DNA of 64,000 nucleotides from Tridacna crocea (lineage: Eukaryota; Mollusca; Bivalvia; Cardiida; Cardiidae). The stretch covers positions 16,705,501-16,769,500 of the forward strand of contig OX031072.1 in assembly GCA_943736015.1 (NCBI GenBank), given 5' to 3'. Within the stretch, counting starts at the first letter, position 1. Every line of letters begins with the position of its first letter. This document shows, piece after piece, positions 8,882 through 38,060 of this stretch. The translations under genes and the position numbers were made by a program. The notes under the pieces are model-generated. The model was not told the DNA's origin. It saw only the letters and a program-made list of their open reading frames with translations, and made no database searches.

Positions 8882-8946
8882 GAATGAAAAGAACATAATT
8901 ATGAGGAAAAAATTCTAATTCTTTTTAATTTCTTGAAATATTTCAG

Positions 8947-9441
8947 GCAAAACATGCTGCAGAAAAAATTCAACACAAGTCACCAGCATTTGAAGGACCT
9001 ATGAGGAGCGAGTCGCCAACATTTTCCCCACCACGTTCTTCCCCATCCTACCAAAACCAACAACAGCAGTTTGCACAGTCTAGAACACGGATGAGTGATC
9101 CATCTTTCTCGGCAACAAAGAGAAATTCAGCCCCAGTGCAGATGTCTCCATCAAAATCTTCAAATTCAAACACAAACTCTCCAAAACGTAACTCAAACCC
9201 ACCTACGTCCACCCTACAAAACTTTCAGGTTGTCACCATACGTGAATCTCTGGAAAACAATGTGAACAATTCTAACAGGTTTAAAGGTTCGCCTGTAACA
9301 GCGTTAAAAGATGAGATTGACAGACGGTTTAGTAATGGTGGCCTTGGTACATTAGATTCAGGGCTTGGTATGGGCTTTGGAGATGAAATGGACAGTTTTC
9401 TCCGGCAGAAGACTGCACATCACTATGATAATGAAGACGTG
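8947..9441 (+). CDS. Exon of PTB-SH2 adaptor: Ser/Pro/Asn-rich linker
   Basis: Internal exon of 165 codons, phase 0 at both ends (TTTCAG acceptor, donor G|GTAAAG). It is low-complexity and probably disordered. Several Ser-Pro sites (SESPTFSPP, RSSPS, MSPSK, NSPKR, KGSPV) suggest proline-directed phosphorylation. KRNSAP (58-63) and KRNSNP (80-85) fit an R-x-S-x-P 14-3-3-type pattern. Residues 96-150 are less repetitive (VVTIRESLENN, DEIDRRFSNGG, DEMDSFLRQK) and may contain a short conserved segment. The exon ends HHYDNEDV, where Tyr160 sits in a Y-x-N motif of the Grb2-SH2 type. The exon runs in frame from the first exon into the next. Functional readings of motifs are inference. The open frame, splice sites and phases are seen directly. 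Confidence 0.88.
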
Positions 9442-9552
9442 GTAAAGAAAGTTATTTTTATTCCAGATATTATCTAATCTTTTTGCTCTTTGATTTCTTG
9501 ATAGTTTTTAACAACGATCCTGGGAAGCTTATTTTTTATACATTTCTCTAGT

Positions 9553-12280: not shown

Positions 12281-12406
12281 CTTTTATTCATCAGGATTTT
12301 ATAAATAGTTTAAATTTCTGATTCATCTTGTGGTCAAAACAAAGCAAATGAAGTGTTTTGATCTACTACATTCAGGTATGAATTTGCCATGATCATTACC
12401 TTTCAG

Positions 12407-13059
12407 TCAATGGCACCATCATACAAGATGCAGAACAGGCCATTGCCAGCCATACCCCCAGCCTCTGACTCGGCCCCAGATCACAGAGCAAGTCCACGTC
12501 TTAGAAACTGGACAAGTTTAGATGACGACGTCATTCCACATCATACCAGGATGCATAGTCAGGCCAGACTACGAGATAGCCCAAAACGACGTCCTCAGCG
12601 TCCACAGAGTGAAGTCATTCTGGACTCTAAACTGTATAATGCAGGAATTAGTGGAGACCAGCCGGGAGTGTATATTTATGGTTTTAAATCACATACTCAG
12701 AATCAATTATCTTCCCATTCACAAACCTCTCCAGATGGCCCATCAAAGGCTGGTTTATCAACAAACTTTAACAGTGGCAAACCTATGCATCAACAGACAC
12801 ATAATAAACTGGAAATGAACATCAAGCCAGGCCAGCAGCCATATTTATCCAAGGGGAGCAACTCCAATGGTAGTCTGTATTCTCCAAAGGGAAGTTACTC
12901 TCTTCAAAAGACTGGTTATGATAATATGCACAGTTTGCAGAATGGAAGTTCTGCCTCAAGTTCACATATACATTTTGTTAATGGAAGTCCTAATCACGTA
13001 ATTAATGATGTCACTGGGGAAGACGGCAGCCCAACAAAAACCAAAGAAAAAGGCAGTGG
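12407..13059 (+). CDS. Exon of PTB-SH2 adaptor: proline/tyrosine motif linker
   Basis: Exon of 217 codons plus 2 nt, starting in phase 0 after TTTCAG and ending AGTGG|GTATGT, so the split codon is completed by the next exon. Residues 11-17 are RPLPAIP, matching the RPLPxxP class I SH3-ligand pattern. Residues 54-66 are strongly basic (RLRDSPKRRPQRP). Tyrosines occur as LYNAG (77), VYIYGF (89, 91), SLYSP (158), GSYSL (164) and GYDNM (171); the last is a second Y-D-N motif. The remainder is Ser/Asn/Gly/Gln-rich and likely disordered. This resembles the linker of adaptors that recruit Grb2-type proteins once phosphorylated, which is inference. Intron retention past 13059 would soon hit a stop at 13160-13162. 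Confidence 0.88.
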
Positions 13060-13092
13060 GTATGTATTCTTTTCAAGATTTGATATATGTTT

Positions 13093-13160
13093 TGGTTTGG
13101 ATAAGTCCAAAACTTTGTCACTTTGTAGAGAGTTAGAAACCAGTCATTTAGTAAAGGGTT
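13093..13160 (+). repeat. TTAA-A MITE end fragments
   Basis: TTTGGATAAGTCCAAAACTT and GTCATTTAGTAAAGGGTTAG lie just after the exon 3 donor. Confidence 0.6.
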
Positions 13161-13379
13161 AGTTAGAGATCTTATGGGGACACTGATGTCCGGGAATTTC
13201 CACACAGATGAATACAATGTATGTATCACTCTACCCCTTTCCAGACTTGCTAAATTAAAATTTGACCAATGTTACTGGAGTAAAATTAATGTCTTCATAG
13301 AAAAAAAACCATTTATATTATTAAGAGAAAGGAATTTTTTTTTTCCAAGTGATACTGAAATACTGAGAAAAACTATGCT

Positions 13380-36698: not shown

Positions 36699-36902
36699 TT
36701 AAACTCTTTGCCACGACTTTTAAAGACCTTGAGAGAGAAAGCTTTTGAAAACATTGTGGGAAATGGAGAAAATGCTGGTAACCAGCATTTTCTGCCTTTC
36801 CCACAATGTTTTTTACCCTTCCCAAAACAATTTTGATTCTTCAGTCTGCAAATGCTTTCAATTTGGACCAGTCCAAAATTTTGTCGTTTGGTAAAAAGTT
36901 AA
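36699..36902 (+). repeat. TTAA-A MITE, plus
   Basis: TTAAACTCTTTGCCACGACT to TCGTTTGGTAAAAAGTTAA with the full core. Confidence 0.88.
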
Positions 36903-37064: not shown

Positions 37065-37070
37065 GTGTGT
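37065..37070. repeat. TRIM target-site duplication, left
   Basis: GTGTGT, repeated at 37599-37604 on the other side of the element. Confidence 0.75.
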
Positions 37071-37276
37071 TCTTACGAACAAAGTCCGTAACAAAGAAAC
37101 AAATGAATAAATGCATGGCAGAAATAAGGGTCGGAGCGGGATTCGAACTCCGAACTCCCGGACGCAAAGCCAATACCCTAACCACTGAGCCAAAGAGATA
37201 TCTCCCTGACGCAGTAGCCAGGTATTGTATTTAAATCGGGAGTATGCCATGCAGGAAGGAGTGGTCTCCCGTAACA
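37071..37276 (-). repeat. TRIM 3' LTR
   Basis: On the minus strand the B box GTTCGAATCC is at about 37139-37149 and the A box TGGCTCAGTGG at 37182-37192. Identical in length to the other LTR. Confidence 0.88.
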
Positions 37277-37289
37277 CACCCCCTCTTAA
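37277..37289 (-). other. TRIM polypurine tract
   Basis: The minus strand reads TAAGAGGGGGTG immediately before the TGTTACG start of the 3' LTR, where plus-strand priming is expected. Confidence 0.75.
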
Positions 37290-37374
37290 AGTCATCATTT
37301 ATTGATGACTCAAAGCCTTATTAGGCAGGAAGTCCGATTTAGGACAACAAATGGGATTAATGGGTCAATGGCCA

Positions 37375-37392
37375 ATCCCGGACGAGCCCCCA
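37375..37392 (-). other. TRIM primer-binding site, tRNA-Pro type
   Basis: The minus strand reads TGGGGGCTCGTCCGGGAT, directly after the 5' LTR. This is the 18-nt primer-binding sequence known for tRNA-Pro-primed retroelements. Confidence 0.88.
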
Positions 37393-37598
37393 TCTTACGA
37401 ACGAAGTCCGTAACAAAGAAACAAATGAATAAATGCATGGCAGAAATAAGGATCGGAGCGGGATTCGAACTCCGAACTCCCGGACGCAAAGCCAATACCC
37501 TAACCACTGAGCCAAAGAGATATCTCCCTGACGCAGTAGCCAGGTATTGTATTTAAATCGGGAGTATGCTATGCAGGAAGGAGTGGTCTCCCGTAACA
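37393..37598 (-). repeat. TRIM 5' LTR
   Basis: B box at 37461-37471 and A box at 37504-37514 on the minus strand, spaced as in a tRNA. TTTAAATA near the LTR start could act as a TATA-like site. Confidence 0.88.
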
Positions 37599-37609
37599 GT
37601 GTGTTAATG

Positions 37610-37830
37610 TGGTGTTTAACAGTGATTTAATTTGCACAATATTTCTCTAAAGCCATTGGCTGCCTGCCTGCAGAACCATCATTGAAACATTGATCAGAGG
37701 TGGAAGGAACAAATTATTTTGTGATGTCACCATTGTCAATTCTCTAAAAGAAATTGGCTGAGCGGGTGATTTGAACCAGCAACCAGGTTGTATCAAGTCT
37801 AGTATGTAATCAACTCTGTGCCTGGCAGAG
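37610..37830 (-). repeat. tRNA-derived SINE, minus, older copy
   Basis: GGTGTTTAACAGTGATTTAA distal end, GAAACATTGATCAGAGGTGG and AAAAGAAATTGGCTGAGCG body. The tRNA head is eroded (GATTTGAACCAGCAACC). The TRIM lies only 11 bp away. Confidence 0.78.
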
Positions 37831-37875: not shown

Positions 37876-38060
37876 AGAGCTCCAAATCAGAAGGAGTGAT
37901 TCTAAATCCATTATTTCCCTTTGAAACCATATGTTGTTGGTACTCATTAGAATCGTCTCGATGAGACGATTCTAATGAGAACCCACAACATACAGTTTAG
38001 TGGAGAGTGATTAATATTTTTCATTTTGAAATCAAAATCACTCACTCTATCTACAGCTCT
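37876..38060. repeat. Palindromic element G3
   Basis: AGAGCTCCAAATCAGAAGGA at the left, CTCACTCTATCTACAGCTCT at the right. The central hairpin is TACTCATTAGAATCGTCTCG / GAGACGATTCTAATGAGAAC. Confidence 0.9.

What the first reader, a model, noticed from the sequence alone, without database searches (positions are those of the whole stretch)
37071..37598. Miniature LTR retrotransposon whose LTRs contain a tRNA-like Pol III promoter
Seen: two 206-bp direct repeats with three differences; 18-nt TGGGGGCTCGTCCGGGAT touching the 5' LTR on the minus strand; a TAAGAGGGGGTG purine tract touching the 3' LTR; GTGTGT on both flanks. Inside each LTR, an A box TGGCTCAGTGG and B box GTTCGAATCC sit at tRNA spacing. 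Known: the 18-mer is the tRNA-Pro primer site used by some retroviruses and Metaviridae; plant Cassandra TRIMs carry a 5S promoter in the LTR. Inference: this is an animal analogue that captured a tRNA gene and could be transcribed by Pol III, Pol II or both.
Basis: partly seen in the sequence, partly recalled or inferred. Interest (0 to 1): 0.88.

Follow-up and report, generated by a model that had tools for sequence, protein, structure and literature searches.

The report
tRNA-promoter mini-retrotransposon of a giant clam
This is one copy of an abundant, gene-less jumping element in a giant clam genome whose ends carry a tRNA-like promoter; the kind of element was described in 2024, but its long RNA hairpin and its swaps with a protein-coding relative are worth following up.

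Summary
Window 37071-37598 holds a 528-bp minus-strand element: two 206-bp LTRs (3 differences), 116-bp interior, tRNA-Pro-type primer site, purine tract, and A/B boxes at tRNA spacing in both LTRs. It belongs to a large family: 7,287 LTR starts at <=2 mismatches, reversed-pattern control 0. Target duplications are 4 bp, not 5-6: 36 of 40 top-hit loci and 33 of 40 chosen loci on contig C1, solo LTRs and tandem arrays included. The tandem-SINE alternative is refuted. The host is almost certainly Tridacna crocea.

The 'animal analogue of Cassandra' is in print as Helenus (Kojima 2024). This looks like a new family, in a bivalve lineage not listed there.

New here: (a) the tRNA-like half is one arm of a 38-pair RNA hairpin (z about -8) whose arm-to-arm transitions all keep sense-strand pairing; (b) a candidate helper, a gag(SCAN)-integrase-RT-RNase H Gypsy element with the same primer site; (c) one locus where a palindromic form of the tRNA-bearing LTR flanks gag-integrase sequence with a 4-bp duplication. 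Pol III transcription is untested, and conservation tests of boxes and hairpin within the family were negative or inconclusive.

The parts
37393..37598 (-). 5' LTR (206 bp; sense reads TGTTACGG...TTCGTAAGA)
   Evidence: the element ends TCGTAAGA in 40 of 40 loci and starts TGTTACGG in 37 of 40
37071..37276 (-). 3' LTR (3 differences from the 5' LTR)
37375..37392 (-). primer-binding site of tRNA-Pro type, directly adjoining the 5' LTR
   Evidence: tRNA identity recalled, not matched to a host tRNA gene
37277..37288 (-). polypurine tract TAAGAGGGGGTG, directly adjoining the 3' LTR
37504..37514 (-). A box TGGCTCAGTGG in the 5' LTR (LTR 85-95)
37461..37471 (-). B box AGTTCGAATCC in the 5' LTR (LTR 128-138; first base A rather than G)
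37182..37192 (-). A box in the 3' LTR
37139..37149 (-). B box in the 3' LTR
37476..37565 (-). 90-nt RNA hairpin in the 5' LTR (LTR 34-123), apex at the expected first base of the tRNA-like sequence
37154..37243 (-). the same hairpin in the 3' LTR
37550..37557 (-). TATA-like TTTAAATA (LTR 42-49), about 30 nt upstream of the hairpin apex; a second copy lies in the 3' LTR
37289..37311 (-). internal hairpin holding an AATAAA, just upstream of the polypurine tract
37067..37070 (.). left copy of the 4-bp target site duplication (GTGT)
   Evidence: 4-bp length
37599..37602 (.). right copy of the 4-bp target site duplication (GTGT)
   Evidence: 4-bp length

Best explanation
This is one copy of a high-copy Helenus-type TRIM (a miniature LTR retrotransposon with a tRNA-derived Pol III-type promoter in its LTRs, 'TRIMp3') in the giant clam Tridacna crocea. 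Shown: LTR-PBS-interior-PPT-LTR anatomy, 4-bp duplications, solo LTRs, tandem arrays, many near-identical copies. Inferred: RNA starts near the hairpin apex in the 5' LTR, most likely by Pol III from the A/B boxes. It reads through the element, which lacks a TTTT stop, and ends at the first T-run in the flank or weakly in the T-rich LTR end. It is packaged by a Gmr1-like Gypsy element with the same tRNA-Pro primer site, reverse transcribed from tRNA-Pro, and integrated with 4-bp duplications.
For: Anatomy and exact 4-bp duplications at 36 of 40 top-hit loci and 33 of 40 chosen C1 loci; 7 solo LTRs with 4-bp duplications among 20 single places on C1. 7,287 LTR starts, control 0. Recent activity: 28 of 62 LTR pairs identical over both samples, 7 of 25 in the C1 sample. 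A/B boxes at tRNA spacing. No T4 run in the sense strand of the 322-nt LTR+interior unit (shuffle mean 3.07, 0.8% with none); 75 of 80 loci have none. Candidate helper: SCAN gag, integrase, RT, RNase H, same PBS, LTR end GTTACG..CTCGTAACA against GTTACG..TTCGTAAGA. Chimeric locus L126.
Against: No transcription data. The boxes are at best slightly more conserved than the rest of the LTR (one-sided rank test P 0.031 on all sites, 0.054 without CpG sites; slid two-box mask rank 44 of 153). No tRNA model hit. 9 of 198 window segments of 322 nt also lack T4. The B box departs from GGTTC in the window copy and in most LTRs (G at LTR 128 in 17 of 152). A TATA-like box sits where a Pol II promoter would also fit. 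The helper link rests on shared PBS, similar LTR ends and rare chimeras; two of the other candidate helper loci (L128, L129) hold no long coding stretch.
Confidence: 0.82

Rival explanations
1. The element is an ordinary Pol II-transcribed TRIM; the tRNA-like stretch is a SINE remnant kept for another reason, such as the RNA hairpin.
For: TTTAAATA about 30 nt upstream of the hairpin apex; boxes not clearly extra-conserved; no tRNA model hit; the hairpin's left arm lies upstream of where Pol III should start, yet its transitions look selected on sense RNA.
Against: A and B boxes at tRNA spacing, with 0-3 departures per site among 152 LTRs except at the first B-box base, 17; lack of TTTT in a 33% T sequence; no AATAAA in the LTR, the only one lies before the 3' LTR; published Helenus families keep the same boxes.
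Confidence: 0.3
2. A tandem pair of SINEs or a satellite-like repeat, not an LTR element.
For: tRNA-like boxes in each repeat; tandem arrays exist.
Against: PBS and PPT in register; exact 4-bp duplications around full-length copies, solo LTRs and whole arrays; the 8-12 flanking bases printed show no common tail.
Confidence: 0.01
3. The LTR hairpin is a Pol III-driven small-RNA precursor, as in foamy virus and BLV microRNAs, and its product rather than promoter function keeps the arms paired.
For: 38 pairs, -48 kcal/mol, z -7.6 to -8.3; 7 or 8 arm-to-arm transitions keep sense pairing, 0 favour antisense; Pol III-directed retroviral microRNAs are known (search listing and starts of abstracts only).
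Against: The A box lies in the 3' arm, so a Pol III start just upstream would miss the 5' arm; substitutions among 92 distinct LTRs do not favour pairing (transitions at Watson-Crick pairs: 14 keeping against 11 breaking kinds, 19 against 40 cells; all single changes: 49 cells keeping, 94 breaking); no small-RNA data.
Confidence: 0.12

Closest known systems
Helenus (TRIMp3), Kojima 2024, PMC10886601 (text parts 1-4 of 6, tables and legends read)
   Same: TRIM mostly under 1 kb, tRNA-derived A/B boxes in the LTR, PBS and PPT, 4-bp duplications in animals, tRNA-Pro among bivalve primers, tandem arrays in one fish family, thousands of LTRs in some species.
   Different: Host lineage: Kojima's table lists bivalves of Pteriomorphia only; this host is in Imparidentia. 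The terms hairpin, palindrom and inverted do not occur in its main text. It argued that long LTR sharing with the autonomous partner is unlikely; here one coding chimera, itself lacking RT, carries the tRNA-bearing LTR sequence.
Cassandra (5S-bearing plant TRIM; PMC7215508 and PMC10853983, passages only)
   Same: Pol III small-RNA promoter in the LTR; tandem arrays of LTRs and interiors.
   Different: 5S rather than tRNA promoter, plants rather than animals, and terminators inside the LTR.
Gmr1-like Gypsy elements (clade name and integrase-before-RT order recalled; SCAN in Gmr elements from PMC4131045 passages)
   Same: Candidate helper has SCAN-type gag and integrase upstream of RT/RNase H.
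   Different: The TRIM has no coding sequence; clade assignment was not tested by a tree.
PbTRIM of the harvester ant (PMC3532108, search listing and start of abstract only)
   Same: Animal TRIM.
   Different: No tRNA-like LTR content is mentioned in what I saw.

Membership tests
Helenus / TRIMp3 | TRIM: two LTRs, short, no coding region | tested here: met
   528 bp; LTRs 206 bp, interior 116 bp
Helenus / TRIMp3 | tRNA-derived sequence (A and B boxes) in the LTR | tested here: met
   boxes at tRNA spacing in both LTRs, 0 hits in 300 shuffles; no full tRNA model hit; Kojima too finds only a few Helenus predicted to encode a tRNA
Helenus / TRIMp3 | PBS next to the 5' LTR and PPT next to the 3' LTR | tested here: met
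   among the C1 loci that hold an interior, it aligns over 1-116 except in L065 (3-116) and one of two interiors of L054 (10-116)
Helenus / TRIMp3 | 4-bp target duplications (animal Helenus) | tested here: met
   36 of 40 and 33 of 40 loci exactly 4 bp
Helenus / TRIMp3 | sequence similarity to a published Helenus family | not tested
   Repbase and the paper's supplements were not available
Helenus / TRIMp3 | transcription by RNA polymerase III | not testable with these tools
   no expression data; also unproven for published Helenus
tandem SINE pair | monomers without PBS/PPT, with A-rich or simple tails | tested here: not met
Gmr1-like Gypsy (candidate helper, not the window element) | integrase upstream of reverse transcriptase; SCAN-type gag | tested here: met
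   pieces searched apart at two loci
Gmr1-like Gypsy (candidate helper, not the window element) | placement in the Gmr1 clade by an RT tree | not tested
   no tree built

The most novel reading that the evidence does not exclude
The tRNA-bearing LTR is an exchangeable module and not confined to the gene-less TRIM. Template switching at the LTR hairpin makes an inverted double-tRNA LTR and puts it on Gmr1-like coding sequence. The swaps would show co-packaging directly and name the helper of a TRIMp3, and the hairpin would be a selected RNA structure shared by all of them.
Probability: 0.3. Interest if true: 0.7.

Novelty: new member of a known kind. Interest (0 to 1): 0.47.

Why it matters
It extends Pol III-type TRIMs to a bivalve lineage absent from the published list, at thousands of LTRs, with many insertions young enough for population tests. 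It also gives a rare lead to the coding element that moves such a TRIM, and a structural idea (promoter arm = hairpin arm) that can be tested on all published Helenus families.

Tried and rejected
Phage collection and IMG/VR pattern search: no match. Extra conservation of the boxes: weak or absent (rank tests P 0.031 and 0.054; slid mask 44 of 153). Covariation of the hairpin among 92 distinct LTRs: no support; both LTRs of the old copy L065 have lost it. DNA-level similarity of the two arms alone is modest: 4 of 2,000 shuffles reach it. Interior fold: z -1.5, unremarkable. The tRNA-like stretch does not fold as a tRNA (z -0.05). A first reading of L130 as a coding element with TRIM LTRs at both ends was dropped: its 3' LTR is the helper's, and part of a helper LTR lies between the primer site and gag. 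Genome-wide counts of the LTR-PBS junction, of the palindrome centre and of L065-like old copies were asked for but did not complete.

Full report
Observation. Read on the minus strand, the order is LTR (37598-37393), 18-nt tRNA-Pro-type primer site, interior (116 bp in all) ending in a purine tract, LTR (37276-37071). The A box starts at LTR 85 and the B box at LTR 128. A degenerate A+B pattern, written after seeing the element, hits only these two LTRs in the window and has 0 hits in 300 mononucleotide shuffles. A stricter pattern missed them because the B box begins with A. ARAGORN (bacterial setting) and Rfam at gathering cut-off report nothing in the window. Rfam at E<=10 on this stretch gives three sub-threshold matches, none a tRNA.

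Family. The window's own assembly (1,048,827,098 bp, 31 contigs) is held. A DNA search scored 40 of 607 first-look candidates and listed 43 matches, 42 of them over the whole query at 96-100%. The first 23 bases of the LTR occur 7,287 times at <=2 mismatches; the reversed pattern occurs 0 times. I examined 80 loci. Forty are top hits, window included. Forty were chosen from the first places listed on contig C1: 20 single places, 5 of odd spacing and 15 pairs. The second set requires an intact 23-base LTR start, so it is biased against old copies. Exactly 4-bp duplications flank 36 of 40 and 33 of 40. In the first set, one other shows 5 bp and the window 6 bp in a GT run. L026 runs off the fetched stretch, and L045 has a partial LTR beyond its 3' end; both count as none (the simpler test gave L045 a 6-bp match). 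In the second set one shows 3 bp and six none. Of the 20 single places, 7 are solo LTRs with 4-bp duplications, 11 are LTR-interior-LTR (5' LTR incomplete in L049 and L067), 1 is a tandem array and 1 a fragment. Tandem arrays L040, L054, L068 and L069 each have one 4-bp duplication around the whole array. Seven further loci give 5 of 7 with 4-bp duplications.

Age. LTR pairs are identical in 28 of 62 elements over both samples. In the C1 sample 7 of 25 are identical, with a maximum difference of 13.6%. The window pair differs by 1.5%. The family has been active recently; I give no date because no rate was calibrated here.

Host. The mitochondrial ND5 gene on contig C31 is 99% identical to Tridacna crocea ND5, next best T. 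squamosa at 94%. Assembly size matches the 1048 Mb listed for T. crocea (PMC11700175, passages). There are 18 large contigs (C18 40.2 Mb; C19 57 kb), as in the 18 pseudo-chromosomes of another T. crocea assembly, itself 1.30 Gb (PMC10858879, passages). The species belongs to Imparidentia.

Known kind. Kojima 2024 (PMC10886601; text parts 1-4 of 6, tables and legends) describes Helenus: TRIMs with tRNA-derived LTR content in fungi, animals and one plant, with 4-bp duplications in animals and tRNA-Pro among bivalve primers. Its bivalves are all Pteriomorphia. Searches for Helenus with TRIM and retrotransposon, and for TRIMp3, found no other paper on it; a looser search listed 10 of 98 papers, of which only Kojima's holds the word Helenus. 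The word does not occur in the main text of the two Tridacna genome papers. Repbase was not available, so identity with a deposited family cannot be excluded.

Promoter evidence. The 322-nt LTR+interior unit has no run of four T on the sense strand; dinucleotide shuffles average 3.07 and 0.8% have none. Against that, 9 of 198 window segments of the same length also have none, and A runs are uninformative (shuffle mean 0.45). 75 of 80 loci have none, and in the 70 loci with one in the fetched 3' flank the first T run lies at a median of 49 nt. This fits Pol III read-through but was noticed after the fact. The boxes show 0-3 departures per site among 152 LTRs except the first B-box base (17), yet the two-box mask ranks only 44 of 153 slid positions; rank tests give P 0.031 on all sites and 0.054 without CpG sites. 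A TATA-like TTTAAATA lies about 30 nt upstream of the hairpin apex, where either polymerase could start.

Hairpin. LTR 34-123 folds into 38 pairs at -48 kcal/mol (z -7.6; -8.3). The antisense strand reaches only -26.9, though that too is better than shuffles (z -3.9). The apex is the expected first base of the tRNA-like stretch, so the A box lies in the 3' arm. Transitions between the arms are 7 or 8 sense-wobble and 0 antisense-wobble, depending on the alignment (two-sided sign test P 0.016 for 7:0); there are also 5 transversions. Of 92 distinct LTRs, 90 fold at -31.8 kcal/mol or better; the other two are both LTRs of the old copy L065. Substitutions among copies do not favour pairing: 49 cells keep and 94 break a pair. 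Most such changes probably arose after insertion. Selection on the RNA is thus suggested by the arm comparison only, not shown.

Candidate helper. The primer-site 18-mer followed by a base other than T occurs 210 times, control 0; 100 places are listed. I fetched 39 of the 100 (27 with A, 9 with G, 3 with C at that base). 29 are this TRIM; 1 (L117) has a TRIM-like interior with another LTR end. 6 have another LTR ending CTCGTAACA (CTCTTAACA in L123), followed by GAAAT and the primer site (L112, L122, L123, L138, L145, L147). 3 have the TRIM LTR end with a foreign interior (L108, L120, L137). Downstream of L122 and L120, searched in pieces, lie SCAN gag, integrase, RT and RNase H, with integrase before RT; the L122 element has a deletion between gag and integrase relative to L126. 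Downstream of L112 and L123 no long coding stretch was seen apart from one of 122 codons. That order and the SCAN gag are known to me from Gmr1-like Gypsy elements; SCAN in Gmr elements is also stated in PMC4131045 (passages).

Chimeras. At L108/L126 (C2, from 32619977) gag and integrase sequence, without RT, lies between two terminal repeats of 258 bp. Each is an imperfect palindrome: an inverted copy of the TRIM LTR's 3' part followed by that part, centred where the TRIM hairpin is centred. Arms are 121 of 129 and 118 of 124 identical, and their transitions are roughly balanced between strands (1 and 4, 2 and 3), unlike the TRIM's. The right arm of the 5' repeat matches the window LTR at 134 of 134 positions. 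The flanks share ACTA (read), a 4-bp match that chance gives about once in 256. No purine tract adjoins the 3' repeat, which argues against ordinary reverse transcription of this copy. L130/L134 starts with the same kind of palindromic repeat and primer site, but continues into part of a helper LTR and ends in the helper's LTR; it is a rearranged chimera. My reading is that hairpin-primed synthesis or template switching made the palindrome, and that TRIM and helper RNAs met in one particle. Both steps are inference from two loci.

Noticed in passing
37924-37998 and 36748-36812: Two near-perfect inverted repeats (36-nt and 32-nt arms, 3-nt and 1-nt loops) on either side of the element, MITE-like in look.
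   Followed up: no
about 37752-37800, minus strand: A second B-box-like stretch (GGTTCAAATCA) by eye, perhaps a tRNA-SINE fragment close to the element.
   Followed up: no
L117 (C3:67461994-67462312): A TRIM-like interior behind a different LTR 3' end, perhaps a second related family.
   Followed up: no
L045 (C3:4494345-4496022) and L070 (C1:23106070-23107709): L045 shows a partial LTR just beyond the full element's 3' end; L070 has a 5' LTR with a large internal deletion yet a 4-bp duplication.
   Followed up: partly
window 8929-9477 and 12362-13162, plus strand: Long open stretches that look like exons of an unidentified gene; no significant Pfam family.
   Followed up: partly
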